Of a DNA stretch of 64,000 nucleotides, positions 36,049 through 59,682 are shown piece after piece. The notes under the pieces were generated by a model. It was not told the DNA's origin and searched no databases. It worked only from the letters and a program-made list of their open reading frames with translations. The DNA lies in contig NC_014664.1 in assembly GCF_000166055.1 (NCBI RefSeq), positions 1,513,927-1,577,926 of the forward strand, read 5' to 3'. Position numbers and translations under genes: made by a program. Each line of letters starts with the position of its first letter. Positions within the stretch are counted from its first letter, which is position 1. The DNA comes from Rhodomicrobium vannielii ATCC 17100. GTDB taxonomy: Bacteria > Pseudomonadota > Alphaproteobacteria > Rhizobiales > Rhodomicrobiaceae.

Positions 36049-37167
36049 ATGACCTACATCCACGAGCGCAAAGATTGGCCGAACCTGACATGGGATGCGG
36101 GGAGGCTGGCTGCGCCGTTGGCACATGTGCGCCATCGACAGGGGCGGCTGATCGGCCGCATGGAAGGACTGGGCTTCCCGCTGCGCGCAGAAGCGTTTCT
36201 CCAGACGCTCACCCAGGATGTGCTCAAGTCGAGTGAAATCGAGGGTGAGAATCTCGACAAGGAGCAGGTGCGCTCATCCATTGCGCGTCGGCTCGGCATG
36301 GACATCGGCGGCCTGGTTGCTGCGGATCGCCATGTGGAAGGCGTGGTCGAGATGATGCTTGATGCCACCCAGAACTACGCCGAGCCCTTGACCGAAGATC
36401 GTCTGTTCGCCTGGCATGCGGCCCTGTTTCCGACCGGACGCAGCGGCATGACCAAAATTGTCGTCGGCGGCTGGCGCACCAACCATGCAGGGCCGATGCG
36501 CGTCGTGTCCGGGCCGATCGGCAAGGAGAACGTGCATTTCGAGGCGCCCGAGGCATCGCGTCTGCCGCAGGAAATGGCGGACTTTCTGGGATGGCTTGAG
36601 GGACCTCATCAGATCGACCCGGTTCTGGTGGCGGGGCTCGCGCATTTGCGGTTCGTCACCATTCACCCGTTCGAAGACGGCAACGGCCGCATCGCGCGCG
36701 CGATCGCCGATATGGCGCTGGCGCGCTCGGAACAAAGCGCGCAGCGGTTTTACAGCATGTCCGCGCAGATCCGGCTGGAACGCAATGCCTATTACGACAT
36801 CCTGGAACACACCCAGAAGGGCGATCTGGATGTGACGCCCTGGCTCGGATGGTTCCTGGGCTGCCTTGACCGGGCGTTCAACGGTGCAGAAGCGACACTG
36901 GCCATCGTCTTGCGGAAGGCACGCTTCTGGGAGGCACAGGGCGGCCGGGCCTTGAACCCGCGTCAACAGGCCATGCTCAATCGCCTGTTCGATGGCTTTG
37001 AGGGCAAGCTCACATCCTCGAAATGGGCAAGGATCTGCAAATGTTCGCCGGATACCGCGCTTCGGGATATCGCCGAGTTGGTTAAGGATGGGGTTCTCGT
37101 GAAGGAAGCTGGTGGCGGCCGCAGCACCAGCTATGCTCTGGCTCCGGAATGGGGGGAAGAAGCATAA
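36049..37167 (+). CDS. Fic-domain AMPylase with C-terminal winged helix
   Basis: 372 residues. The N-terminal DUF4172-like segment contains the inhibitory motif SSEIEG (residues 61-66, pattern S-x-x-x-E-G), whose Glu blocks ATP until relieved. The Fic core has HPFEDGNGRIAR with catalytic His206. The flap-like part is near FPTGRSGMTKIVVGGWR. Residues ~310-365 form a winged helix (SKWARICKCSPDTALRDIAELVKDG). Fic proteins transfer AMP to hydroxyl groups of target proteins. The fused DNA-binding domain and the promoter palindromes suggest self-regulation. It is followed by the AIPR gene after 93 nt. Confidence 0.9.
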   Translation: MTYIHERKDWPNLTWDAGRLAAPLAHVRHRQGRLIGRMEGLGFPLRAEAFLQTLTQDVLKSSEIEGENLDKEQVRSSIARRLGMDIGGLVAADRHVEGVVEMMLDATQNYAEPLTEDRLFAWHAALFPTGRSGMTKIVVGGWRTNHAGPMRVVSGPIGKENVHFEAPEASRLPQEMADFLGWLEGPHQIDPVLVAGLAHLRFVTIHPFEDGNGRIARAIADMALARSEQSAQRFYSMSAQIRLERNAYYDILEHTQKGDLDVTPWLGWFLGCLDRAFNGAEATLAIVLRKARFWEAQGGRALNPRQQAMLNRLFDGFEGKLTSSKWARICKCSPDTALRDIAELVKDGVLVKEAGGGRSTSYALAPEWGEEA

Positions 37168-37260
37168 CCAAACCGCGCCTGCTGGGGCATAGGTCTCCCC
37201 ATTTATTATTTACAACTTAACTAAATAGCTCTAATGGTGTTTTATTCTTAAGGGGGAAGC

Positions 37261-39180
37261 ATGACTGACATTGTTAGCTTTGAGGACTTTAAGGAAAGTT
37301 GGCTCGAATCCGTTACTGTCGATAACCCGACCACGGTGCAGCTCGGACAGAGGTTTGCGCAGAAGATTGTCAGCCAGTGGCTAGACACTGACGATGAGTC
37401 TTTAGATATCACTTACTGCGATGGCTCTGGTGACGGCGGTATCGATATAGCGGTTTTAGAGCGCAATAGCCCCGCTATTGCCGATGAAGATCAGGAAGGA
37501 GATACTTGGTACATCATTCAGAGTAAGTATGGTTCTGCTTTTGCAGGGACAGAAACATTGCTTCTGGAGGGCCAAAAAGTTATCGAGACGCTTTCTGGAC
37601 AGAGAAATAACCTGTCATCACTTGCCAGTGGGTTACTTGAGAAATTAATCAACTTTCGCGCCAAGGCAACAGAACACGATCATATCCGCCTTGTTTACGC
37701 TACTGTGGATCCACTTACGCCGAAGCAGCAAGATGCGCTTGAGTATGTTCGCGTCATGGGGCGTGCTAGGCTGGGGCAACTTTTCGATGTCTCGGCTATC
37801 TCAATCGCCTCCATCCATGATGCACAAGCGGAAGAAGCTCAGCTCGCCACACGTCGACATCTCACGTTTCCGCTCAATGGGCATTTGACACCAGCAGGAA
37901 CGGACCTATTGGTTGGATCGGTCTCATTGCCAGACCTATACACTTTCCTAAAAGCATATCAAAAGCGGACAGGATCGCTTGATCAGCTCTACGAGAAAAA
38001 TGTTCGTCGGTTTCTTGGAGGGCGAGTAAAAGTCAATAAAGGGATGCAGGGAACCCTGCGCGAGGCGCCAGAAAAGTTCGGACTTTACAACAACGGAATC
38101 ACCATAACTGTATCAGATTTCTATCCATCCGGTTCTGGGGTTTATGAGTTGGTGGAGCCGTACGTGGTGAATGGATGCCAGACGACGCGTTCGATTTGGG
38201 AAGTGCTTTCCAGCAAGTTGGATACTGGCGGCAGCGGAAAAAACATCAAGCTCGACGAATGGCGAGAACGTGCCGAAAAGGGATGTGTTGTTGCAAAAAT
38301 CGCCAAGGTTGGTAGCGACGGAGAGGCGTTGCTTCAGGATATTACCCGTTACACAAACAGCCAAAACGCTGTCCGGGAAAAAGATTTTGTTGCAATAAAT
38401 CAAGGATTTAAAACTTGGCACAAGGAGCTTGCTTCAGAGCAATACAAGCTTTTCCTTGAGATACAGCGCGGCGGTTGGGATTCGCAGCGCGCATTCCAAA
38501 AACAAAATCCAACAAGTCGGCAGTTTACGCGTTTTGCAAGCGCCCTTGACCTTACAAAAGTATATGGAGCTGGCTGGCTCGCCGAGCCTGGCCTTGCTTT
38601 CGGAAAAAATCCCCCGTTTCTCCCAAGTGGAAGCGTGTTCAATAAAATGATCGCGGAGCGTCCAAGTGGTCCCCAGTTTGGATCTCGCGAGCTTTATGCT
38701 GCCTATCTTTTACTAGAGTCTGGCCGGAAGATGGGATTTGGGCGTGGCGGCATTACGTCAAGGCGCCAAACCAAATTCTTATACTATTTCGTCCTGATCA
38801 ACTTGCTGCGCGATGTGTTACAGAAAGAGCAATTATCTTCCACCTTGGTGGATATCACCGAGGCGGTGATAAAATTGTTGGAAAAACAGAATGACGCGGG
38901 TACCTCTCTGGAAGAGATCGCTGCGGCGCTTATCGACAGTTACATGACCGAGAGTGATGAAAATAGCGTTTTCCACGAGGAAAAGTTTCGTGACGGTAAC
39001 GGCTTCAATTTCGATCTGAACGGATTTTTGAAGTGGGAACAGCTTGGAAGAAGCTTGGAGCAGACAGCCTGCTTGCAGGCGCAACTATTCTTTCAAAAGC
39101 AATTCATGGGTATGAGCCATTCTGGTGGCCGTACGGTAAGGAAGACGTTATCGGACTATCTCAAAGCAAATAATGCTTAA
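37261..39180 (+). CDS. AIPR-family phage-resistance protein with nuclease-like N-terminus
   Basis: 639 residues, low GC compared with the neighbours. The AIPR domain (about 230-560) is recognised by KFGLYNNGITITVSDFYPSG-type sequence and VVNGCQTTRSIW, and by QDITRYTNSQNAVREKDF. Residues 45-95 look like a PD-(D/E)XK core: GSGDGGIDIAVLE then WYIIQSKYG, with D-x-D and Q-x-K spacing as in Mrr-type nucleases. AIPR proteins were named for abortive infection against phage. A nuclease that acts on infection is the inferred mechanism. A GGGGGAAGC stretch just before the ATG serves as RBS. It is probably a defence gene on its own, with the Fic gene upstream. Confidence 0.85.
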   Translation: MTDIVSFEDFKESWLESVTVDNPTTVQLGQRFAQKIVSQWLDTDDESLDITYCDGSGDGGIDIAVLERNSPAIADEDQEGDTWYIIQSKYGSAFAGTETLLLEGQKVIETLSGQRNNLSSLASGLLEKLINFRAKATEHDHIRLVYATVDPLTPKQQDALEYVRVMGRARLGQLFDVSAISIASIHDAQAEEAQLATRRHLTFPLNGHLTPAGTDLLVGSVSLPDLYTFLKAYQKRTGSLDQLYEKNVRRFLGGRVKVNKGMQGTLREAPEKFGLYNNGITITVSDFYPSGSGVYELVEPYVVNGCQTTRSIWEVLSSKLDTGGSGKNIKLDEWRERAEKGCVVAKIAKVGSDGEALLQDITRYTNSQNAVREKDFVAINQGFKTWHKELASEQYKLFLEIQRGGWDSQRAFQKQNPTSRQFTRFASALDLTKVYGAGWLAEPGLAFGKNPPFLPSGSVFNKMIAERPSGPQFGSRELYAAYLLLESGRKMGFGRGGITSRRQTKFLYYFVLINLLRDVLQKEQLSSTLVDITEAVIKLLEKQNDAGTSLEEIAAALIDSYMTESDENSVFHEEKFRDGNGFNFDLNGFLKWEQLGRSLEQTACLQAQLFFQKQFMGMSHSGGRTVRKTLSDYLKANNA

Positions 39181-40797: not shown

Positions 40798-41187
40798 ATG
40801 CCCGCGAGGGGATACCAGAAACCCGATCCCGTGGACCGGCGTATCCGGGTCCAGCTGACCGATGCCCAGGCGGAGAAGCTTGCGCGACTGTCCGATGGAG
40901 CGGGCGTAAGCCAGAGTGAATACATGCGGAGCCTCCTCGATGGTGTGGGCGCCGCCACGCCGAAGGAGCCGCCAAAACCGAAGCGGGCTTCTCCCGCGAT
41001 GCTGAAGCTCGTTGAGATTCACGAGTTGGCGATGCAGGTGAAGAAGCTCGGCACCAATGTGAACCAGCTGGCGCGGCAGGCCAACACCGGCATGGTGCCG
41101 CTGACACGGCGAGAGATTGAAGCGATGCTGGCCCAGCATGAGGCGCTCCTCAAGGCCGCCATCACCGTCATCGAGGCGTCGCTCTGA
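40798..41187 (+). CDS. mobC: MobC-like relaxosome accessory protein
   Basis: 129 residues. The N-terminal ~50 residues (VDRRIRVQLTDAQAEKLARLSDGAGVSQSEYMRSLL) form a ribbon-helix-helix-like DNA-binding unit. The C-terminal MobC motif is LGTNVNQLARQANTG. MobC proteins help the relaxase open the strands at oriT. The stop TGA shares its last base with the relaxase ATG (TGATG), so the two are translationally coupled. Confidence 0.85.
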   Translation: MPARGYQKPDPVDRRIRVQLTDAQAEKLARLSDGAGVSQSEYMRSLLDGVGAATPKEPPKPKRASPAMLKLVEIHELAMQVKKLGTNVNQLARQANTGMVPLTRREIEAMLAQHEALLKAAITVIEASL

Positions 41188-42395
41188 TGATTGGCAAGGT
41201 GCCGGATCAGGGGAAAAGCTTTCGCGGCGTCGTGAACTACCTCCTGTTCGGCAAGAAGGATGAGCCGTCGCCCGAACGCGTGGCGTGGGTGGAGACGCGG
41301 AACCTGCTCGTCACCGATCCGAAGAAAGCGGCGACGCTGATGCGGCTCACGGCGCAGAAGTCGAAGCGGGTGAAGACGCCTGTCTACCATTACGTCATCA
41401 GCTGGCGCCATGACGAGGCCCCGACAGATGACATCATGCGGATTGTGGCTGATACCACCTGTCAGGATCTGGGCCTTGATGAGCACCAGATGCTGTATGT
41501 CGCGCACCGCGATACCGATCACCGCCACGTCCATATCGTCGCGAACCGCGTCCATCCGGACACGGGTCGCGCATGGAAGAACAGCCACGACTACCGCCGC
41601 ATCGAGTGCTCGTTGCGCCGCCAGGCCGAGGGCATGGGGATGGACTATGTGCCGGGGCGGCACAACGATCCCGAGCGGTTTCACGGAAAGTCACGGGCTC
41701 CCGCGAATCCGGAGCGCCAGCGCAACAGGCGCCTCAAGCAGCGCGACCTTCCGCGCTTTGATGAGGCAACGCGGTCGAAACACCGGGAACGGCTGCACCA
41801 GTTGGTACTGGGTGCCTCCTCATGGGCAGACCTCGATAGTCAGCTCGCGAGCGAGGGATTCGCGGTGTTGCGAAAGGGGCAGGGGTTGGTGCTGGCCGAT
41901 GCAAGCGGCACCATGAAGCTCTCTGATCTTGGGAGGGATATCCGGCTCAAGGGGCTGGAGGAGCGGTTTGCAGGCAGCTTTGCCGATCACGAAGAGGAAC
42001 GGAAACAGCAGCAGGCCATGCAGAAGGCGCTCGTGCCGTCACGTCCGAAGACGGTAGAGCGCCAGCCGGAGCCGCCCGCCGACAAGCCCGCAGAGGTCCC
42101 GCCCCCCGGTCCGAAGCCCAAAGAGCCAAATCAGAGCGCCGAGCGGTTCGAAGCGCTGAAGGACGCGGGCGATAAGGCCGATATGACGTATTCTCTCTAC
42201 AACATGGGCCTCGCTTCCCGCGAGCAGGTGAAAAATGCGGCGCGAGAACTGAAGCAGGCGCGGGAGAAGCTGGACGAGGGCAGGCCGCTTATTGAGCAAC
42301 TCACGAGGGACATGTTCAAGGAAAAAGAGCTCGAACCGGAGCCACGGGCTGAACCTTCGCGGCAGCGGCGTCGTGATCGCGGGCGGGGGCGGTAA
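41187..42395 (+). CDS. HUH relaxase (VirD2/MobP-like)
   Basis: 402 residues. The relaxase domain covers about 1-190. The nucleophile is probably Tyr18 (GVVNYLLFG), and the metal triad is His112, His114 and His116 in HRHVHIVANRVHPDTG. It nicks oriT and stays bound to the 5' end of the strand to be moved. The middle is a Pro/Lys-rich linker (PPADKPAEVPPPGPKPKEP). The C-terminus QRRRDRGRGR is an arginine-rich tail like that required for VirD2 or VirE2 recognition by VirD4-type couplers. The coupler gene follows after 133 nt that hold no gene. Confidence 0.92.
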   Translation: MIGKVPDQGKSFRGVVNYLLFGKKDEPSPERVAWVETRNLLVTDPKKAATLMRLTAQKSKRVKTPVYHYVISWRHDEAPTDDIMRIVADTTCQDLGLDEHQMLYVAHRDTDHRHVHIVANRVHPDTGRAWKNSHDYRRIECSLRRQAEGMGMDYVPGRHNDPERFHGKSRAPANPERQRNRRLKQRDLPRFDEATRSKHRERLHQLVLGASSWADLDSQLASEGFAVLRKGQGLVLADASGTMKLSDLGRDIRLKGLEERFAGSFADHEEERKQQQAMQKALVPSRPKTVERQPEPPADKPAEVPPPGPKPKEPNQSAERFEALKDAGDKADMTYSLYNMGLASREQVKNAARELKQAREKLDEGRPLIEQLTRDMFKEKELEPEPRAEPSRQRRRDRGRGR

Positions 42396-42528
42396 TCATC
42401 ATGCCGGGCGGAGCCGCAGCCGCTGAATTTTGAGGATAGCCGCTTTTCGGAAAGGAAAAGCCGATGCGAATCATCGCGCGCATTGGTTAAGTTGACGCTA
42501 CCAATGGTTGCGAACTTTCCGGGATCCG

Positions 42529-44502
42529 ATGACGCCCTCTCTTTTCCTGTCCTCGCTTGATGCATTGTTGAACGACCCTGCGGGGCGGATTTCCGCGCCC
42601 GTGGCGGATATCCTTGCGACAATCCCCGACAGGCAGCTCCAGAAGATCTTCGACGGGGCGCTTGGCGAGCATCCGATGGTGTCGAAGGAGGACATCCTCG
42701 GTCCCATCGGCGCGAGCGGCGTCGGTATCCTGACGTATTTCCTCGGTTCTGCGCAGAGGGGGTACGATCGCGGCAAACGGCTGAAGCTGGAACGGATCAT
42801 CCGGAGCTATACGGTGTCGCGGCCGTCCATTTCGCTGACGGATCAGGAGAAGGGGCTTGTGCGCGGCATGGCGGCGCTCAGGGCCGGTGAGCATATCAGC
42901 GGGCGGGAGTATGAGGCCTTTCTCGCTGAGTTTGCCTATGGTGGCGGGCAATGCGCCGTCATTGCAGACCCCCATTGGCAGGGCGAAAAGCACGAGCGCG
43001 ACGCAAATCAGGGGCTGCATGCTGTGCTGCGGGTCATCCTCAAGCCCTATCAGCAGTTTCTGGCGCAGACAGCCAATACGGTCGCGGGTGCCCGGCACGT
43101 GACGTCGCCCGCCGGTTCTGAAATCGGCACCTTCCTCAATCAGGGCAGCCGCTGGTTCGAGCACACGGCGCCGAGCGGGACGTTCACGACCGCGTCCAAT
43201 ATGGGCGACCTCACCATCGGCTGGACACCGGACGGCAAACCGTTCCGCTATGGCGGCGACGAAAGCCTCATCACCATCGCGGCGCCCGGAACCGGCAAGA
43301 GCCAGGTGCAGGTGATCCCGAATCTTCTGTCCTATCCGGGCTCCGCCTTCGTGCTCGACGTGAAAGGCGAGCTGTGGGAGGCGACGGCGGGCTACCGCGA
43401 GAAACATTTCGGGCCGGTCTACCGCTTCGCGCCCACCGACCCGGCAGGCAACACCCACGCCTATAACCCGTTTGATTTTGTCAGTGCCGACCCCATTCAG
43501 GCGGCAGTGGACTGCGAGCTCATCGCCAGCCAGATCATCGCGCCTGACGCGGGCGGCAAGGATCCGTTCTGGGACAACCGGGGCCGGGATTACCTTTTTA
43601 CCTTCGCGCTCGCGGTTGCGTTCTCCGAACCAGCGGAGCGGCGCAATCTGGCGACCGTGATGGAGATGCTTGCCGTCCCGGTCAACTTCCCGGACGGTGT
43701 GGCCGACGCCGCCTACTGGGCTTCTCCCACGCCGAAGCTGATGGCACGGCTGAAGGCGCTGGCACAGCATTACAACATCCCGGCACTGGCGGATAATGCG
43801 GTGGCCGTGGAATCAAGCCTCAACGACCGCATCGACGGCGTATTCGACGCGGCGCGCCGCTATCTTTCAATCTTTTCCCGGTCGGTTCGCTTGCGGGCGG
43901 CGATGGCGCGCTCGGACTGGACGCCGCTCGCCTTGCGCGAGCAGCCGGGGACGACAGTCTATCTGTGCCTGAGCGGCGACGACATCGACACCTACACCCC
44001 GATCGTGCGGCTCATCATCCAGCAGCATGCCAATCTCCTGCTGCGTCATACGGTCGGGAGCAGGCTTCCGATCACGTTCTTCCTCGACGAATTCCCCCAG
44101 CTCGGCAACATGGCGAGCATCCTGCGTCTTCTCGACGTGGGGCGCGGCGCCAAGCTTCGCCTGTGGCTGTTTGCGCAATATCTGGGGCAGCTCCGGGATA
44201 CCTACGGCAAGCGCGCGGATGGTCTCATCAACGCCTGCCGGGTGCGGAGCTTCATGCAGCCCGACAATCAGGCCGCAAGCTTCCTTGCACCCCAGCTCGG
44301 CACGGTGGTCCACCTGTTCAGCGGCGAGAAGAAGCCGCTTGCAGAGCCTTACGAGCTCATGGGCCGCGCTTATGCCGACAAGATCATCGTGACCGCGCGC
44401 GGCCACGACCCGGTGCTCCTCGACAAACGCTACGCTTACCGCGACTTCGCGGACGAGATGGCGCTGTCTCCTCCCCGCATCCGTCTTTCCCAACAGGCAT
44501 AG
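42529..44502 (+). CDS. VirD4/TraG-type IV secretion coupling protein
   Basis: 657 residues from the ATG at 42529; a TTG seven codons upstream is also possible. The nucleotide-binding core has Walker A ITIAAPGTGKSQVQVIP (about residue 252), then FVLDVKGELW, and Walker B ITFFLDEFPQLGNM (about residue 515). A WDNRGRDYLFTFALA segment lies between them. The hexameric ATPase brings relaxase-DNA and protein substrates to the mating channel. The N-terminus has only a weak membrane segment (GPIGASGVGILTYFLG). It is the natural reader of the RxR tails found in this region. Confidence 0.92.
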   Translation: MTPSLFLSSLDALLNDPAGRISAPVADILATIPDRQLQKIFDGALGEHPMVSKEDILGPIGASGVGILTYFLGSAQRGYDRGKRLKLERIIRSYTVSRPSISLTDQEKGLVRGMAALRAGEHISGREYEAFLAEFAYGGGQCAVIADPHWQGEKHERDANQGLHAVLRVILKPYQQFLAQTANTVAGARHVTSPAGSEIGTFLNQGSRWFEHTAPSGTFTTASNMGDLTIGWTPDGKPFRYGGDESLITIAAPGTGKSQVQVIPNLLSYPGSAFVLDVKGELWEATAGYREKHFGPVYRFAPTDPAGNTHAYNPFDFVSADPIQAAVDCELIASQIIAPDAGGKDPFWDNRGRDYLFTFALAVAFSEPAERRNLATVMEMLAVPVNFPDGVADAAYWASPTPKLMARLKALAQHYNIPALADNAVAVESSLNDRIDGVFDAARRYLSIFSRSVRLRAAMARSDWTPLALREQPGTTVYLCLSGDDIDTYTPIVRLIIQQHANLLLRHTVGSRLPITFFLDEFPQLGNMASILRLLDVGRGAKLRLWLFAQYLGQLRDTYGKRADGLINACRVRSFMQPDNQAASFLAPQLGTVVHLFSGEKKPLAEPYELMGRAYADKIIVTARGHDPVLLDKRYAYRDFADEMALSPPRIRLSQQA

Positions 44503-54579: not shown

Positions 54580-55482
54580 ATGCCCCTAGGCATTCCCGTC
54601 GTCTATGACTCTATTAGTGGCAATCTTGTCGAGACCAAGCTAGCCCTCGATCTCGACGACAAAGGAATCTCCCATCTTCGCGCCCGGACGCGACAAGAAC
54701 GCAGGTCAGGGGCCAGCAGATATCATTGCGGCCTTTGCCGCGATCCGCTGTACGTTTCGAACTCTGGCGGCATACCGCATTTTGCTCATTACATCGAAAG
54801 CGGCCGCCATTGTGCATGGCGCGCAGGGTCGCCCCGCAATCTTGACGAAATCAGCGCATCTAGGTTTGGTGGCAAGCCTGAGGGCAAACTACACGCTGGA
54901 TTGCTCCGCACTTTGAAGGTGCTGTGCGAGCGTTCGACCGGCTTCAGCGAGGTGGGAACTCCGAATGCCACGTTTTTCGGAATTGAAGGCACCGGCCACC
55001 GTTATCCTGACCTGCAAGCGTGCTTTCTTGAGCATCGACTTGCCTTCGAGTTTCAACCGTCAAGGACGTATCTGACTACAATTAGCGATCGAGAGATTTT
55101 TTATCGGCAAAATCGCGTATTTCTAATCTGGCTGTTTCATGATTTCGAAAATTGGAAAGGGCGGCAGACCGAACGAGACATTGTAGCTCTGAGAAGCCGC
55201 CACGCTTTTGAATTGGATGAGCAAGCAATCATTTCGACAATCGAAAGCGGAAGTCTTACGTTCAAGGCTCATTGGCAACTACCGGAATACAATGGCGCAC
55301 AGTTGAGTTGGCATTGGGAATCGCGCCTGGTGAGAATGGAAGAACTACACTTCGATGATTTCCTAGTGGAAACGCTGGCTGCGCAGCCGTGGCTCTGCGA
55401 GGCAGAACTGCTTAATATGACGCACGCAGCGCTGATAATAAAGTTCGAAAAATACTGGGCTGAGAGATTGGATTGGGGGTAG
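54580..55482 (+). pseudogene. CoiA/DUF6035-like nuclease gene, 5' part, cut by a transposon
   Basis: Residues 1-299 of the original protein, up to LDW; the stop after that comes from the transposon end. A zinc-ribbon-like YHCGLCRDPL...HFAHYIESGRHC is followed by a PD-(D/E)XK-type core HRYPDLQA...LAFEFQPS and by REIFYRQNRVFLIWLF. This is the layout of CoiA-like competence proteins and DUF6035 proteins. Removing bases 55478-59134 joins this frame exactly to the one at 59135-59682, giving about 481 residues. The ancestral gene was thus intact before insertion. It is low GC and accessory. The shortened protein might still fold but lacks its C-terminal third. Confidence 0.85.
55470..55477. repeat. 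Target-site duplication, left copy
   Basis: GGATTGGG immediately outside the left terminal repeat. The same eight bases follow the right terminal repeat at 59127-59134. Length 8 fits IS1-family transposition (usually 8-9 bp). Confidence 0.93.
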
Positions 55483-55500
55483 TGTCTCAGTTTGAAATTT
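55478..55500. repeat. Left terminal inverted repeat of the transposon
   Basis: 23 bases beginning GGTAGTGTCTCAGTTTG, perfectly complementary to 59104-59126. Weaker similarity continues inward (TTGAC shared) for about 14 more bases. Confidence 0.95.
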
Positions 55501-55592
55501 CGGTGGGTTGACACTCCATCCCAACCACCTCGTGGAATGTCTTCCAGCTTAAGTTGGATAGGCTAAAGTCATCCAAATTTGTGGGTGATTCG

Positions 55593-55991
55593 ATGCCGAA
55601 ACCAAATTCATTAGCCCTGCCTCAAGCGACAGATCAAAACGATGTTGCGGCGCTTGCGTTGCAAGCTGTCGATTCAATCGCCAACTTATCTAACCAGTAT
55701 ATGACTTATACAGCCGTCCTGCTTGGGGTTTTTGCCTTGATAGGGCTTGGTGTCGTTTTGAGTGCGGTTCGGTGGTATGCTAAGGATGCCAGCAAGAAGT
55801 GCGCCAACGAACACATGCAAAGGTACATCCAAAATGGCCAGGCAAGGGAACTATTGGCGCAACTTGTCGATGAAGCTGTTCAGAAGGAGTTCTCGACAAG
55901 AACTTTCGTGAGTGTCCGACCGCAAAGGGCACCTAAAGACGGTGGACCCCGTTTCACAGAAGACCCAAAGTCAAAGCGGAGCCAAGAATGA
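55593..55991 (+). CDS. Single-TM protein upstream of the ImmA-like protease
   Basis: 132 residues from the ATG at 55593; an open 13-codon extension upstream reaches toward the transposon end. It has one membrane helix at about residues 37-58 (YTAVLLGVFALIGLGVVLSAV) with flanking helical, polar parts and a C-terminal KDGGPRFTEDPKSKRSQE tail. No family is recognised. Its stop overlaps the protease ATG by four nt (ATGA), so the two proteins are co-translated and may work together. Cargo gene of the transposon. Confidence 0.65.
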   Translation: MPKPNSLALPQATDQNDVAALALQAVDSIANLSNQYMTYTAVLLGVFALIGLGVVLSAVRWYAKDASKKCANEHMQRYIQNGQARELLAQLVDEAVQKEFSTRTFVSVRPQRAPKDGGPRFTEDPKSKRSQE

Positions 55992-56470
55992 GCATCATCC
56001 CGTCTGAAATTTTGGCTGTGATTGGCCCAAGGCTACGTTCTTCTCCTGTTGACGTCAATGCAATTGCATCAGACCTCGGGTTGGGGATTTACGAAAGCAA
56101 TTTAGGTAACGGCATATCTGGGGTGTTAGTCCGTGAGCCAGCCTACGGGTCTCCATCTGGCTTTGTGATTTTCGTGAACAGAGATGAGCCTTACGTGCGA
56201 CAGCGGTTTACCGCAGCCCACGAGATTGGCCATTTTGTCCTGCACCGGGAACGAATTGGTCAGCGCGTTGAAGATAATTATTTGCTGAGAGCACAGGGGC
56301 TATCCAACACGCTGGAGTCTCAAGCGAATAGGTTCGCCGCAGACATCCTGATGCCCTACGAGCTTATTCAAACGCTTGTAGATCAGGGCATTAATGGCAT
56401 TGATGCTTTGGCCAATAGCTTGCAGGTCTCCCAAATCGCCTTGGCAATTCGCTTGGGGCACCCGACCTAA
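55988..56470 (+). CDS. ImmA/IrrE-family metallopeptidase
   Basis: 160 residues. The zinc site HEIGH is at 78-82 (RFTAAHEIGHFVLHRERI), followed by the downstream acidic region NRFAADILMPYELI, which is typical. ImmA-type proteases cleave a repressor or antitoxin to switch mobile-element or toxin-antitoxin genes. The usual XRE-type partner is missing; the upstream partner is a membrane protein instead. The target is therefore unknown. Its stop overlaps the transposase stop on the other strand by a few bases. Confidence 0.88.
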   Translation: MSIIPSEILAVIGPRLRSSPVDVNAIASDLGLGIYESNLGNGISGVLVREPAYGSPSGFVIFVNRDEPYVRQRFTAAHEIGHFVLHRERIGQRVEDNYLLRAQGLSNTLESQANRFAADILMPYELIQTLVDQGINGIDALANSLQVSQIALAIRLGHPT

Positions 56471-57339
56471 GCGGCCTTCTTTTTATAAGGCCCGCGCTTC
56501 TTCGGCTCACACTTCGCGGCGTCGATAAGGGCAATCACGTCATCCCAGCCCCAAAGCTTTTCGGTCAAGCCAGCGGCCATCGCGGGCGAAACCTTCAGGC
56601 TCTTATGGATGCGGACGAAATTGTAATAGACGAAGTAGAGCGCCAGAGCGTGGCAGTGGCTTTCGAATTTCTTTGAGAAGGCGTTCGTAAGCCGCGTGAA
56701 GCGGCGCATGGACATGCGCATCGTGAGGTTCTGGCGCTCCGCGTAGCTCGTGGAGATGTCCTTCTCCTTCGGGTTTCCGATCTTCGCCGTCTTCTTGATG
56801 CCGGTGCATTCTGCTGGGCTGTAGCGGCCCTTAAAGGCTTCCGGTGCGGTGCCGTACATCTTCACGAGCATCGCGTAGTCGATCTCAGACCCGAACGCGC
56901 CTTCGACCGCTTGCATGTAGACCTTGTAGCCGTCCGTGGTCATCTGGATGCGGCCATTAAGGCGCGAAGCCAGATCGTCCATGAACAGCTTGGCGAAGTC
57001 GGCATCGCGACCGCCCACGAACCAGTTGCAGATCAGCTTGCTATCCGCACAAATCGAGGTCCACGTCCACACGTCGCCAGCGAAGTCGGGAGCCTTCTCA
57101 GGAACGTTCTTTTCCTTGGCGTAGACGAAGCTCCAGATCTCATCGCACTGAATTTTCTTGCAGTTCAGGCCCTTCACGTTCTCGTCGTGATAGGCGAGGC
57201 AGGCTTCGCCCGCTTCCGCAAGGAGCTTAGCGACCGTGTTTATGGAGACGCCGACCACGCGGGAAATCGACCGCATGGAAGAGCCTTCCACCAGCATGGA
57301 GAGGATTTGGACGCGTTTCTCGTGGGGCAGTTTGTTCAT
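56467..57339 (-). CDS. IS1-family transposase
   Basis: 290 residues from the ATG at 57339 (MNKLPHEKRVQIL). An in-frame ATG at 57378 overlaps the stop of the P63C gene but would place an 18-bp palindrome inside the coding sequence. An N-terminal helix-turn-helix (GSSMRSISRVVGVSINTVAKLL) and zinc-finger-like cysteines precede the DDE core: Asp in CDEIWSFVY, Asp in TTDGYKVY and Glu in YAERQNLTMRM. The single-frame layout is that of the long IS1 variants, not the frameshifted insAB type. It should act on the terminal repeats at 55478 and 59126. Confidence 0.9.
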   Translation of the reverse strand: MNKLPHEKRVQILSMLVEGSSMRSISRVVGVSINTVAKLLAEAGEACLAYHDENVKGLNCKKIQCDEIWSFVYAKEKNVPEKAPDFAGDVWTWTSICADSKLICNWFVGGRDADFAKLFMDDLASRLNGRIQMTTDGYKVYMQAVEGAFGSEIDYAMLVKMYGTAPEAFKGRYSPAECTGIKKTAKIGNPKEKDISTSYAERQNLTMRMSMRRFTRLTNAFSKKFESHCHALALYFVYYNFVRIHKSLKVSPAMAAGLTEKLWGWDDVIALIDAAKCEPKKRGPYKKKAA

Positions 57340-57360
57340 GCCCTCAATATATGAACTTTT

Positions 57361-57378
57361 ATGCTTAGCGTCAAGCAT
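57361..57378. promoter_or_regulatory. Palindrome ATGCTT-AGCGTC-AAGCAT, copy 1
   Basis: It lies between the P63C stop region and the transposase ATG at 57339. It differs by one base from the copy at 59043-59060, which lies before the last gene of the transposon. A looser pair (AAGCAT at 58455-58460, ATGCTT at 58479-58484) lies before the P63C gene. Probably an operator for a transposon-encoded regulator. Confidence 0.6.
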
Positions 57379-58399
57379 GTTTTTCTTCTTCCGGAGGTGG
57401 AAGAGAAAATAGGTCGTTGGGGCCCGGTGGGAATTTCTTGCAAAATAACCTAGTAAAGTCTGCCCAGTCGTCGGCGACTGAGAGAAGGGTGGTTACGGCG
57501 ACAATCTGTTTTTGCAAATGAGGATCGCCGATATCTTCGGTAAGAAAGCGATAATGCAGTTGCCGCCGTCTCCCAGTTTCTGGGGCGCGAGGGTTTTTCC
57601 GGCGAAGTTCATCGAGAACGCCTTCTGGTAGTTGCTTATAAATCAATTCATTAGTTAGCTTCCCGATATAATGATTCCGCTTGTTCGAGCCGGGGACATA
57701 TTTCCATCCTCGCACACGGTGGAGTTCAGCGTAGAAGCTTTGCGGGAAGCGCTGCGACCATGGCATCAGTTCAGGGGATACGTAGGCAGCGAGAATTTTC
57801 TGTAATTCATCGCGGGCTCGAAATTCCTGGTAACCTGTGGCTTCATCAACGAGTGCGACAATGCCGATATCGGCAAGGGCCCTCATTAGCTCTTCGGCAC
57901 GTTGTGCTTTGTCGAGTTGCTGCTCTTGAAGCGCCCCCGCCGCGCGAGCTTTGAGCCATATTTCGCAAACTACGCGCAAGATTCTCGCATCGTATCCGAT
58001 CACTACTGACCTGCCGTCGACGTACTGAATCGGCGTAAGGGGCCCTGACTCTAAGTCATTGGGAATAAAGGGCTCAAGATGCCTTGGGGCGATGAATAAG
58101 GGCAAATGGGCCCCGGCCTCTTCGGCGGCTTTTTTCTTTCGTTTGGATGCGCCGCTTCTGCTCCCCAGAATAGCGTTCGTTATCCCAAACTCTGACAGGA
58201 CGCGCGTCCCATCCGTCAGGATGGCGCAGGGGATCGTTACATTACCGAGATTCAGGGTTCCTGAAAAATCGACGGATGGTAGGCTTGATCTTTTTTCCCA
58301 GCGTGCCGTCGCGGCGATAGATGCGATTGCGGTTCTTTCCTCTGACGTCAGCTTCTGCGCCCGAGCTTCACCGCCCTTGCTTTGGATGGATTTTGACAC
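57371..58399 (-). CDS. P63C-domain protein
   Basis: 342 residues from a GTG at 58399 (GTG TCA AAA TCC) with AGGAG 8 nt before it; the frame is open to a TTG at 58456. The N-terminus (SKGGEARAQKLTSEERTAIA, then ATARW) is the same motif as the end of the small protein encoded next to it. The P63C domain (about 215-320) is recognised by LVDEATGYQEFRARDELQKIL, FPQSFYAELHRVRGW, IGKLTNELIYKQLPEGVL and LTEDIGDPHLQ. P63C proteins occur in phages and mobile elements; the function is unknown. Cargo of the transposon. Confidence 0.85.
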   Translation of the reverse strand: MSKSIQSKGGEARAQKLTSEERTAIASIAATARWEKRSSLPSVDFSGTLNLGNVTIPCAILTDGTRVLSEFGITNAILGSRSGASKRKKKAAEEAGAHLPLFIAPRHLEPFIPNDLESGPLTPIQYVDGRSVVIGYDARILRVVCEIWLKARAAGALQEQQLDKAQRAEELMRALADIGIVALVDEATGYQEFRARDELQKILAAYVSPELMPWSQRFPQSFYAELHRVRGWKYVPGSNKRNHYIGKLTNELIYKQLPEGVLDELRRKNPRAPETGRRRQLHYRFLTEDIGDPHLQKQIVAVTTLLSVADDWADFTRLFCKKFPPGPNDLFSLPPPEEEKHA

Positions 58400-58485
58400 A
58401 GCGTATTCTCCTGAGAAAGCAGGCCAGAGAATTTCCGATTCTGTGCGTGCAAGCAAGCATAAAAATTTTGATTAGCGCATGCTTG

Positions 58486-58728
58486 CTATTTGCCCCACCG
58501 CTTCTCAGCGGCCTTCTTCGCGATCTCCGCGCGCCGCTCTGGCGTCATGGCTTGAGCGCGCGCCTTCCCGCCTCGCTTGCCCATGGATACAGCAGCGGGG
58601 TCTTTGCCTTCGTCTTCAGGTTTGGAAGGTGCGTCTTCTTCGACTTCGCCTGTCGCGATCTTCGCAATCTTGACGGCAGCGCCAATCACATCGGCGGGGC
58701 GCTTCTCGCCTTTAGGTCCTTTAGGCAT
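58486..58728 (-). CDS. Small basic KGGKARA-motif protein
   Basis: 80 residues. The N-terminal part is MPKGPKGEKRPADVIGAAVK. An acidic middle (GEVEEDAPSKPEDEGKD) and a basic C-terminal motif (GKRGGKARAQAMTPERRAEI, then AAEKRW) follow. The last motif also opens the P63C protein downstream. It suggests a common DNA/RNA or partner-binding helix, as in histone H1-like tails of bacteria. It lies 9 nt after the stop of the membrane protein gene, hence in the same operon. Confidence 0.7.
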   Translation of the reverse strand: MPKGPKGEKRPADVIGAAVKIAKIATGEVEEDAPSKPEDEGKDPAAVSMGKRGGKARAQAMTPERRAEIAKKAAEKRWGK

Positions 58729-58737
58729 CGGATTTCC

Positions 58738-59031
58738 TCACTTCCCGGAATGGTGGACGATATATTGCAGGATGTCAGGGATGAACCAAATGCCAGCGCA
58801 GAGAACGAAAGTCATGACAATCGTTCTTGCGACCGCGCCGCGCCATTTTACCGTGAACAGCGCAAGCCTCTCCGCAATGTAGTGGAGAAATCGAAAAGCC
58901 GCGCAGATCATGGCTAGACCGACCGTAGCCCCAAAGGTGGCGTTAGGAGTGTAAAGGTCGATCACCGCTTGGGCGGCGACGAAGAGCAACATCCAGTCAG
59001 AGTATGTGTAGGGAGTAGCCTTTTGTTCCAT
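58738..59031 (-). CDS. Small membrane protein of the transposon
   Basis: 97 residues with two or three hydrophobic segments (WMLLFVAAQAVIDLY, TVGLAMICAAFRFLHYI, TIVMTFVLCAGIWFIPDIL) and no recognised family. It is the first gene of the minus-strand cargo operon. The 18-bp palindrome at 59043-59060 ends 12 nt before its ATG, a site expected to overlap the promoter or RBS. Confidence 0.65.
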   Translation of the reverse strand: MEQKATPYTYSDWMLLFVAAQAVIDLYTPNATFGATVGLAMICAAFRFLHYIAERLALFTVKWRGAVARTIVMTFVLCAGIWFIPDILQYIVHHSGK

Positions 59032-59042
59032 ATCCCGGCTCC

Positions 59043-59060
59043 ATGCTTAGCGTAAAGCAT
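59043..59060. promoter_or_regulatory. Palindrome ATGCTT-AGCGTA-AAGCAT, copy 2
   Basis: Just upstream of the first gene of the minus-strand cargo operon. 17 of 18 bases match the copy at 57361-57378. Its location close to the right terminal repeat (44 bp) also permits a role in transposase binding. Confidence 0.6.
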
Positions 59061-59103
59061 ACGGCACATGGAGCAGGAAAGCCACCCCCGCGTCAAGCGG
59101 GCC

Positions 59104-59126
59104 AAATTTCAAACTGAGACACTACC
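59104..59126. repeat. Right terminal inverted repeat of the transposon
   Basis: 23 bases ending ACTGAGACACTACC, the exact complement of 55478-55500. It is followed directly by the target duplication. Confidence 0.95.
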
Positions 59127-59134
59127 GGATTGGG
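59127..59134. repeat. Target-site duplication, right copy
   Basis: GGATTGGG, identical to 55470-55477. Its last G starts the Ala codon (GCG, 59134-59136) at which the interrupted gene resumes. Confidence 0.93.
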
Positions 59135-59682
59135 CGGATAAACTATCGCGAGAGGCCGTTTACTGCATCAGATCCGGTCAAACGATCAATAAATCGCGTA
59201 GTAGTGAGGCCGTAACATCACGTGCATTTATGGAACTGTTTGGTGCGTGCGGTATGTCTTCACACATGGCCGATCGTGTTAACGAGCTTAACTTTGACGA
59301 TCTGCTAGATCGCCTTATTTTTTTGAGAGACGGGGTAAATAGATTCAACAAAGAGAATATTCCGGGCTCATTAAACACCGTTCTTGAGAACTGGCCGCAT
59401 TTCACCGACGCGCTTGTGGCTGTCGCAACAGCATATGGCCATTCAGAGTATCTGAAGAGGCCAAAGATGCTCTCCAAGATCGAGAGGAACGCGAAAGGTA
59501 ACGACAGGCAAAGACCAGCATCCCAATGTCATGATTTCGACCCGGCTATCGCGATGATCTGTCCTAAGTCGGCCGGGTGGGTCAGGGCTTCATGTCTCCC
59601 GATAACGGAGCTTTGGAAACAGCGATCTGTTTCGGCGGAGTCCGGTTCTGAGGGGGCTGCCGCCTACACATGCTCCCACTGA
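59127..59682 (+). pseudogene. CoiA/DUF6035-like gene, 3' part after the transposon
   Basis: The C-terminal ~182 residues of the interrupted gene at 54580, resuming at ADKLSREAVYCIRSGQTINK and ending AAAYTCSH. The frame is open back to an ATG at 59068 inside the transposon, so a chimeric product could be made, but that start would run through the terminal repeat. The reading frame and the shared codon at the target site show that it continues LDW from the left part. The domain in this part is not recognised. Confidence 0.85.

What the first reader, a model, noticed from the sequence alone, without database searches (positions are those of the whole stretch)
55470..59134. IS1-family transposon carrying five passenger genes, caught inside a gene that can be rebuilt
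Seen directly: perfect 23-bp terminal inverted repeats (55478-55500 and 59104-59126), an 8-bp duplication GGATTGGG on both sides, and an IS1-type DDE transposase inside. IS1 elements usually hold only the transposase. This one carries an ImmA/IrrE protease, a P63C protein, a basic KGGKARA protein and two membrane proteins. That is an unusual accessory set, possibly a repressor-protease switch or defence module.
Basis: partly seen in the sequence, partly recalled or inferred. Interest (0 to 1): 0.88.

Follow-up and report, generated by a model that had tools for sequence, protein, structure and literature searches.

The report
IS1-like transposon with regulator and cargo
A small jumping DNA element is sitting inside another gene; it belongs to a widespread family whose members keep similar ends, the same kind of transposase and one tiny, unnamed, probably DNA-binding protein while swapping the rest of their load, part of which looks like toxin-antitoxin or anti-phage genes.

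Summary
In detail: perfect 23-bp ends, an 8-bp duplication, an intact DDE transposase, single copy in its genome. It is not a one-off. I collected 60 distinct elements, this one included, with similar ends and an 8-bp duplication (exact in 56), 1.9-4.4 kb long, from ten named phyla. Besides the transposase, 56 of 60 encode an ~80-aa basic 'KGG' protein without a Pfam family; the rest varies and often matches toxin-antitoxin or defence families (ImmA/IrrE in 15, P63C 11, Panacea 5). A palindrome, TGCTT-n-AAGCA, lies at transposase and KGG-operon promoters: 41 sites in 187 kb inside elements, 0 in 504 kb of flanks; in this 4-Mb genome its pattern occurs only in the element. Its length tracks a hinge in the KGG protein (27 of 27 elements; a second set agrees), and P63C genes with the same motif mostly have the same half-sites upstream. 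Best reading: KGG is the element's own repressor and the passengers are swappable defence or addiction modules. Regulation and defence are inferred. An ImmA switch as the control circuit is not supported.

The parts
55470..55477 (.). 8-bp target duplication, left copy (GGATTGGG)
   Evidence: sequence
55478..55500 (+). terminal inverted repeat, end distal to the KGG operon
   Evidence: perfect match to 59104-59126
55593..55991 (+). small protein with one hydrophobic (TM-like) segment and a charged C-terminal tail (132 aa from ATG; frame open from TTG at 55554), overlaps the ImmA gene by 4 bp; putative toxin or effector partner (inferred)
   Evidence: similar layout upstream of ImmA relatives in two plasmids, sequence likeness weak
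55988..56470 (+). ImmA/IrrE-type metalloprotease (HEIGH), no HTH domain recognised; putative antitoxin or regulator of the pair (inferred)
   Evidence: Pfam M78 1.1e-17; PADLOC capP 4.9e-30; PDB CapP 7t5t 1.9e-6
56467..57339 (-). single-ORF IS1-like DDE transposase (290 aa; frame open from 57378)
57346..57374 (-). candidate transposase promoter TTGACG-17-TATATT; its -35 lies inside the operator
   Evidence: best of 4 promoter-like hits, 10 of 12; shuffles give 2.8 hits
57361..57378 (.). operator palindrome (ATGCTTGACGCTAAGCAT on the - strand) at the transposase promoter
57371..58399 (-). P63C-domain protein (342 aa, GTG start) with an N-terminal KGG motif
   Evidence: Pfam P63C 1.1e-37; alignment
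58449..58487 (.). AGCAAGCAT and ATGCTTGCTTGC half-sites upstream of P63C
58486..58728 (-). KGG protein, 80 aa, basic; core gene of the transposon family; proposed repressor (inferred)
58738..59031 (-). 97-aa protein with two hydrophobic segments; first gene of the KGG operon; the genes in this place in other elements differ
59043..59060 (.). operator palindrome (ATGCTTTACGCTAAGCAT on the - strand) before the KGG operon
59104..59126 (-). terminal inverted repeat, KGG-operon end
59127..59134 (.). 8-bp target duplication, right copy
   Evidence: sequence
54580..55477 (+). interrupted gene, left part (DUF6035 / CoiA-like region)
   Evidence: frame
59135..59682 (+). interrupted gene, right part (frame continues; no independent match)

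Best explanation
This is one member of a widespread family of IS1-like transposons with a two-gene core (single-ORF transposase and an ~80-aa KGG protein) between ~23-bp ends, and a swappable passenger bay. The KGG protein most likely binds, as a dimer, palindromes of TGCTT/AAGCA half-sites at the promoter of its own operon and of the transposase gene, and so limits transposition (inferred). In this copy the passengers are P63C, which carries the same motif and probably controls its own promoter through the same half-sites (inferred), and a pair formed by a small membrane protein and an ImmA/IrrE protease, most likely a toxin-antitoxin or anti-phage module of the RosmerTA/CapP type that rewards the host for keeping the element (inferred). 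Shown by computation: the ends, duplications, conserved core, cargo exchange, operator location and its covariation with the KGG protein.
For: 60 distinct elements with such ends and an 8-bp duplication, exact in 56 of 60. KGG protein in 56 of 60; among 23 elements whose KGG gene was not in the model, 20. Search by KGG: 27 of 34 transposase-bearing genomes (one, G085, only through its P63C protein) against 2 of 46 without the transposase, one a 30-residue motif match and one marginal. Reverse search by KGG in 299 genomes: 10 hits, 8 beside the transposase or a remnant of it. Operator: 41 sites in 187,128 bp inside 59 elements, 0 in 504,255 bp outside; the own 4.01-Mb genome has only the two element sites with up to 1 mismatch. 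Operator length and KGG hinge agree in 27 of 27 elements. In a second set 26 of 28 loci agree as scored by the script; L218 was scored against and L256 left unscored, and both agree read by eye. Of the 27 operator-bearing elements 18 lack P63C and 21 lack ImmA. P63C genes with the KGG motif have 3-6 half-sites within 150 bp upstream in 8 of 9 non-transposon loci, and 3-6 in a 220-bp window in 10 of 10 elements with the transposase operator masked; without the motif, 0 in 3 of 3 (L269, L270 in 150 bp; L050). Cargo labels change on the transposase tree as often as shuffled labels (27 against 25.8); two same-genome pairs share ends, KGG and transposase but not cargo. M78 in 13 of 143 passenger ORFs, not among the families with 2 or more members in 143 flanking ORFs.
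Against: No binding, toxicity or transposition was tested. On the transposase tree the operator/hinge covariation rests on only 3 independent pairs, so shared ancestry is not excluded. Under the filter used, 33 of 60 elements have no exact operator; the filter was set after seeing sites and dropped two elements with off-promoter hits (L041, L043). Gordonia phage Barco P63C has the motif but no half-sites, and other motif-bearing ORFs of viral contigs are not clearly enriched. I chose the upstream anchors for P63C myself: with the annotated start of the phage SPN9CC gene the count is 0 (the sites lie inside the annotated frame), with the first possible start of L222 it is 1, with the annotated start of L264 it is 4. 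The promoter hit is not above chance in number (4 against 2.8). The KGG model has modest confidence (pLDDT 74.9, pTM 0.33) and no structural match. The membrane-protein/ImmA pair is in no other of the 60 elements that I recognised, the membrane protein has no plasmid match, its likeness to the neighbours in two plasmids is weak (E 5e-4 and 0.005 as single comparisons), and four of six ImmA relatives examined have no such neighbour. M78 could still occur once in the control, which shows only 25 of 121 families, and flanking ORFs do match some PADLOC models (48 families).
Confidence: 0.6

Rival explanations
1. The transposase itself is the regulator: its N-terminal HTH binds the palindrome and represses its own promoter, as InsA does in IS1 (recalled), and the KGG protein does something else (DNA packaging, accessory in transposition).
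For: The transposase is common to the family and has a weak HTH-like N-terminus; the operator sits at its candidate promoter.
Against: The palindrome does not resemble the terminal repeats (by eye); a transposase-less element keeps KGG and an operator (L155); the KGG hinge follows operator length; the same half-sites precede P63C genes with the KGG motif in five plasmids (L238, L264, L265, L266, L268) that are not among the 26 plasmid records matched by the transposase.
Confidence: 0.2
2. ImmA/IrrE is an anti-repressor, as ImmA is to ImmR, and cuts a repressor to release transposition on stress.
For: ImmA is described as an anti-repressor that allows expression of an integrase (PMC10440598, passages); the ImmA protein here has an intact HEIGH motif.
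Against: No HTH repressor gene recognised in the element; 21 of 27 operator-bearing elements lack an ImmA-type protein; the two genes run towards the transposase and do not share its operon. A variant in which ImmA cuts KGG is not excluded.
Confidence: 0.12
3. P63C, not the KGG protein, binds the operator and governs the element.
For: P63C genes with the motif mostly have the same half-sites upstream.
Against: 18 of 27 elements with the operator have no P63C.
Confidence: 0.1
4. The passengers are random hitchhikers with no common theme, and KGG is a chance early acquisition.
For: Many passenger ORFs match no family (for example 6 of 10 match none), and flanking ORFs also match some PADLOC models.
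Against: KGG in 56 of 60 across ten phyla; recurring ImmA, Panacea, HigB, P63C and PD-Lambda-2-type genes, none of which is among the families with 2 or more members in 143 flanking ORFs.
Confidence: 0.05

Closest known systems
IS1 family (single-ORF members; ISfinder's ISMhu11 subgroup is recalled, not tested)
   Same: DDE transposase related to IS1 (NCBIfam IS1 model 69.9 bits), 23-bp ends starting GG, 8-bp duplication; several plasmid relatives are annotated 'IS1 family transposase'
   Different: one ORF instead of two with a frameshift (IS1 layout recalled), scores below the curated IS1 cut-offs, 1.9-4.4 kb with a near-constant second gene and passengers
tIS: insertion sequences with passenger genes (term seen in PMC7986276, passages)
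   Same: an IS-type transposase between inverted ends plus passenger genes
   Different: here one small gene recurs in nearly every member and an operator is shared by its promoter and the transposase promoter
Tn3-family transposons with toxin-antitoxin pairs (PMC7157771: outline with abstract, and discussion read)
   Same: type II toxin-antitoxin pairs inside a transposon, acquired repeatedly; palindromic promoter control is discussed there
   Different: other transposase family; ImmA-, Panacea-, P63C- and PD-Lambda-2-type cargo; I did not search for a resolvase beyond the family scans, whose lists are capped
RosmerTA (RmrT/RmrA) and CapH/CapP (PMC10440598, passages; the CapH/CapP pairing is recalled)
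   Same: ImmA/IrrE protease paired with varied toxins, one with predicted TM regions; L101 has full-length RmrA and RmrT matches
   Different: the window's ImmA has no recognised HTH and its partner matches no PADLOC family
PanAT (Panacea) systems (PMC8832971, passages)
   Same: Panacea proteins next to a protein with a hydrophobic C-terminus (read by eye) in L037, L039 and L041; the paper notes PanATs near transposases
   Different: the window element has no Panacea protein

Membership tests
IS1 family | DDE transposase with IS1-type catalytic region | tested here: met
   D79, D149, E214 invariant in 57 of 57; IS1 model E 2.7e-19
IS1 family | curated IS1 model cut-off | tested here: not met
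   69.9 bits against 100 (NCBIfam); 21.2 against 24.1 (Pfam)
IS1 family | two overlapping ORFs (insA, insB) with frameshift (recalled as the classic layout) | tested here: not met
   one unbroken ORF
IS1 family | ~23-bp ends beginning GG and 8-9-bp duplication | tested here: met
   window: 23 bp, GG, 8 bp. In the 60 elements GG starts and at most one mismatch in the duplication were required by my scan; the duplication is exact in 56
IS1 family | ISfinder subgroup assignment | not testable with these tools
   ISfinder not available; 'ISMhu11' in 0 papers
RosmerTA | ImmA/IrrE protease antitoxin | tested here: inconclusive
   M78 1.1e-17; RmrA models only partly covered, best 5.2e-14, capP better at 4.9e-30
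RosmerTA | recognised RmrT toxin partner | tested here: not met
   membrane protein: 0 PADLOC families
RosmerTA | toxicity neutralised by the partner; phage defence | not testable with these tools
   bench test needed
P63C family | P63C domain above gathering score | tested here: met
   128.9 bits against 26.1

The most novel reading that the evidence does not exclude
The GGxARAxxLTPERRxEIAxxAAxxRW ('KGG') motif is a new kind of short sequence-specific DNA-binding module that reads TGCTT/ATGCTTG half-sites. In one small protein it is the master repressor of a transposon family spread over many phyla that ferries anti-phage and addiction modules; fused to P63C it autoregulates a phage and plasmid gene.
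Probability: 0.4. Interest if true: 0.85.

Novelty: new variant of a known kind. Interest (0 to 1): 0.72.

Why it matters
It links a transposon family, seen here in ten phyla, to the spread of ImmA-type, Panacea-type and PD-Lambda-2-type modules, gives a concrete vehicle for the partner swapping reported for such systems, and proposes a function and a target sequence for a small protein family with no Pfam entry. The DNA-binding claim can be tested with one 80-aa protein and an 18-bp site.

Tried and rejected
Structure: AlphaFold models of KGG (pLDDT 74.9) and P63C (71.1) gave no usable PDB match, so fold neither supports nor refutes DNA binding. PDB sequence search: nothing convincing for KGG or the transposase. 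Empty site in relatives: the interrupted gene's left part has two weak matches in 100 relatives, so no natural empty site was found. Same unit elsewhere: none in 60 relatives. Membrane protein in plasmids: no match. Upstream half-sites in all motif-bearing viral ORFs: not clearly enriched (14 of 57 small ORFs and 4 of 10 longer ones with two or more sites), perhaps because the operator lies before the first gene of the operon. Literature: ten searches (IS1/IS1595 passenger terms, ISMhu11, P63C, Panacea plus transposon, end sequences, RosmerTA terms) showed no description of this family in the listings seen; the two Siguier papers tried are not held, so earlier description in ISfinder-based work is quite possible.

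Rows dropped before counts: one search listed 176 candidate passenger ORFs outside the window; 143 sequences went to (ORFs under about 78 aa and the ORFs of the degenerate L124 and L132 dropped; frame-extended Panacea ORFs of L039 and L041 put in). Controls: 143 of 300 flanking ORFs drawn at random. One search used 34 of the 52 transposase-bearing genomes (18 left out, some fragmentary, some only for room) and 46 without. L077 was dropped as identical to L037. L115 and L118 are the same loci as L023 and L026, whose KGG genes were in the KGG model, hence 20 of 23 rather than 22 of 25. P63C loci L223 (2 sites) and L224 (copy of L222) were left out of the 8 of 9; the motif of L268 is degenerate (no GG) and was counted as present. 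Further closed elements seen later (for example L144, L146, L147, L149, L150, L258, L261) were not added to the 60. Viral KGG loci: the best 80 of 219 were kept. A P63C count of '13ish' in a notebook entry was wrong; 11 is the counted figure. The report's first version said 'neither full length' for the two matches; G016 covers most of the model but is marginal (2.8e-4).
Full report
1. The observation. The element runs from 55478 to 59126 (3649 bp), bounded by perfect 23-bp inverted repeats and flanked by GGATTGGG on both sides. Its ends occur once as a pair in the 4.01-Mb genome (up to 3 mismatches) and in none of four other genomes of the genus (up to 2 mismatches); one of these, G003, does hold a related element with more diverged sequence (L147, 4708 bp, duplication GAAACTCT). 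The transposase is related to IS1 (NCBIfam IS1 model E 2.7e-19, 69.9 bits, under the cut-off of 100), has a single ORF, and keeps D79, D149 and E214, invariant in the 57 transposases aligned. Joining the flanks with one duplication copy gives an unbroken 481-codon frame from 54580 to 59682. The left part is DUF6035-like; the right part found no match among plasmids.

2. A family, not a one-off. The transposase has matches in 52 of 385 genomes of the class, own genome and fragments included, and at 60 loci of the genome collection. Scanning loci for paired ends (GG start, at most 8 of 19 mismatches to the window's end) with an 8-bp duplication (at most one mismatch) gave 59 elements in 100 transposase rows. 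Two more (L063, L072), found, were missed there because the transposase match overran the end; after removing one identical copy there are 60 distinct elements, the window's included. The duplication is exact in 56 of 60, length 1888-4438 bp, median 3200, and the consensus over 120 ends is the window's own sequence. Two elements (L124, L132) are degenerate. Rows without a closed element (contig ends, fragments, decayed copies) were not examined one by one.

3. The near-constant second gene. An ~80-aa basic protein ending in GG(K)ARAxxLTPERRxEIAxxAAxxRW is found in 56 of 60 elements at E < 1e-5 (L047 is weak at 9e-4; L123 lacks the small protein but has P63C with the motif; L124 and L132 have none). 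It lies before the transposase in 56 of 56 and on the same strand in 53 of 56. None of 16 members matches a fitting Pfam family; one plasmid annotation calls it 'histone H1'. Searching by this protein, 27 of 34 transposase-bearing genomes had it (G085 only through its P63C protein) against 2 of 46 without the transposase: G007, a 30-residue motif match, and G016, marginal at 2.8e-4. In 299 genomes of the phylum it occurs in 10 at E <= 1e-10; in 8 it lies beside the transposase or a remnant of it, three of these being genomes already in the set. In the other two, L259 has two such ends with an exact duplication 817 bp apart and L260 one end. Among 45 strong viral-contig loci 26 also have the transposase, and 7 of 35 weaker ones (the best 80 of 219 loci were kept). 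Several of the rest still have the typical end nearby, and some are closed transposase-less elements with matching duplications: L155 (1801 bp), L213 (1264 bp, with an MT-A70 methyltransferase) and L203 (1839 bp, 9-bp duplication).

4. The operator. TGCTT-n-AAGCA palindromes lie at two places in many elements: usually 55-75 bp from the left end, before the KGG operon (35 bp in L055 and L060, 516 bp in L101), and near the 5' end of the transposase gene. Exact sites number 43, in 29 of 60 elements, against 0.44 expected in single-base shuffles. Inside 59 elements there are 41 in 187,128 bp; in their flanks 0 in 504,255 bp. In the window's own genome the pattern ATGCTTNRCGYNAAGCAT with up to one mismatch occurs only at the two element sites. 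The best promoter-like site of the region (TTGACG-17-TATATT, 10 of 12) has its -35 inside the operator of the transposase gene, though four such hits against 2.8 in shuffles is not an excess. A relaxed scan gives 89 sites against 13.1 expected, with a site at one of the two promoter places in 37 of 60 elements and at both in 16.

5. Who binds it. After a filter on the inner bases (set after seeing sites; it removed L041 and L043, whose hits are not at the promoters), 27 elements have an exact operator. All 27 have the KGG protein, while 18 lack P63C and 21 lack an ImmA-type protein. Operator length follows the KGG hinge: 18 of 18 with the short hinge have 16-bp sites and 9 of 9 with the long hinge (GG..GG) have 17- or 18-bp sites. 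L048 and L111, and L179 in the second set, have the N-terminus of the short-hinge group but a long hinge, and they have 17-bp sites. In the second set of 28 loci, 23 were scored short/16 and 3 long/17-18; L218 was scored against, but its hinge is long with one G changed to A, and L256 (short, 16) was left unscored by the pattern. On the transposase tree only three independent pairs exist, one on well-supported branches, which cannot reach significance. A separate line comes from P63C: genes whose N-terminus carries the motif have 3-6 half-sites within 150 bp upstream in 8 of 9 non-transposon loci (Methylorubrum, Deinococcus, Acinetobacter, Roseomonas, Paraburkholderia, phage SPN9CC, two viral contigs; not Gordonia phage Barco). 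With the transposase operator masked, P63C genes with the motif inside elements have 3-6 in a 220-bp window in 10 of 10. P63C proteins without the motif (L269, L270, and L050 inside an element) have none there. The anchors are mine: with the annotated start the SPN9CC gene has 0 (its sites lie inside the annotated frame), L264 has 4, and the first possible start of L222 gives 1. My pattern for the motif failed, so presence was read by eye from the printed N-termini. Other motif-bearing ORFs are not clearly enriched. Two-state comparisons give Fisher p of 2e-7 (hinge and operator) and 0.003 (P63C), post hoc and uncorrected for ancestry.

6. The passengers. Of 143 passenger ORFs, Pfam finds Peptidase_M78 (ImmA/IrrE) in 13, Panacea in 5, HigB-like toxins in 4, NYN in 4, Fic in 2, and single cases of PemK, Abi_2, GmrSD, Bro-N and nSTAND (one search shows 25 of 37 families). 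PADLOC finds RmrA, PD-Lambda-2_B (8 ORFs), capP, SoFic and others. In 143 flanking ORFs none of these families appears among those with two or more members (single-member families beyond the first 25 are not shown), though flanks do match other PADLOC models such as mad8 and AriA. By iterative profile search M78 is in 15 of 60 elements, P63C in 11, Panacea in 5, and the PD-Lambda-2-like set (M78 plus the neighbour C4) in 8. L101 holds full-length RmrA (2e-180) and RmrT (2.2e-88) matches. Cargo labels need 27 changes on the transposase tree against 25.8 for shuffled labels (bootstrap not settled). L055/L060 (one MAG) and L100/L103 (one genome) share ends, KGG and transposase at about 80-92% but carry different passengers.

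7. The window's own cargo. The ImmA/IrrE protein (HEIGH, no HTH recognised) is closest to CapP-type proteases (PADLOC 4.9e-30; PDB 7t5t 1.9e-6). It overlaps by 4 bp the gene of a small protein with one hydrophobic segment and a charged tail. Of six ImmA relatives on plasmids whose surroundings I read, two (Niveispirillum, Neorhizobium) have a similarly built protein in the same place; two have an HTH gene there, one another gene, one nothing clear. ImmA-domain antitoxins with varied toxins, one with predicted TM regions, are described as RosmerTA (PMC10440598, passages). P63C lies directly downstream of cI in phage SPN9CC, after an HTH regulator gene beside a CII-type gene in an E. coli plasmid, near an Abi gene in Paraburkholderia and near a restriction enzyme gene in Acinetobacter. 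This suggests a lysogeny-expressed exclusion gene (inference; the likeness to lambda rex genes is recalled).

8. Model. KGG holds down its own operon and the transposase; absence of KGG after entry into a new cell would let the element jump and then settle. P63C and the ImmA pair give the host or the carrying replicon a reason to keep it. The ends, core, operator, covariation and cargo exchange are shown by computation; binding, repression, toxicity and defence are inferred.

9. Known or new. Passenger-bearing IS elements (tIS, PMC7986276 passages) and toxin-antitoxin genes in Tn3 transposons (PMC7157771, outline with abstract, and discussion) are known. PanAT systems near transposases were noted before (PMC8832971 passages). 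I found no description of this family or of the KGG protein in the listings of ten searches; none of these searched for the KGG motif by name, the IS1/IS1595 papers I tried are not held, and ISfinder subgroups may already contain such elements. I rate it a new variant of a known kind.

Noticed in passing
window 41187-44502: MobA/VirD2-type relaxase and a type IV coupling protein: the insertion lies in or near an integrated conjugative or mobilizable region.
   Followed up: no
window 36049-39180: Fic protein (DUF4172-Fic) followed by an AIPR protein, both possible defence genes (role recalled).
   Followed up: no
L267 (Salmonella phage SPN9CC) 1282-2511; L269 1468-2340: P63C genes sit directly downstream of a phage repressor or repressor-like gene, the place of superinfection-exclusion genes in other phages (position; comparison recalled).
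   Followed up: partly
L213 4937-6200, L155 4683-6483, L203 4900-6738, L259 5953-6769: Transposase-less elements with the family's ends and target duplications that still hold a KGG gene and, in the first three, another gene; one carries an MT-A70 methyltransferase.
   Followed up: partly
L238 upstream of 5007: Three palindromes of the form TGCTTGC...GCAAGCA, about 28 bp apart, in front of a plasmid P63C gene of Roseomonas mucosa.
   Followed up: partly
60 elements, target duplications: The 8-bp duplications are uneven in composition: A-rich at positions 2-3 and T/C-rich at position 7, hinting at a weak target preference.
   Followed up: no
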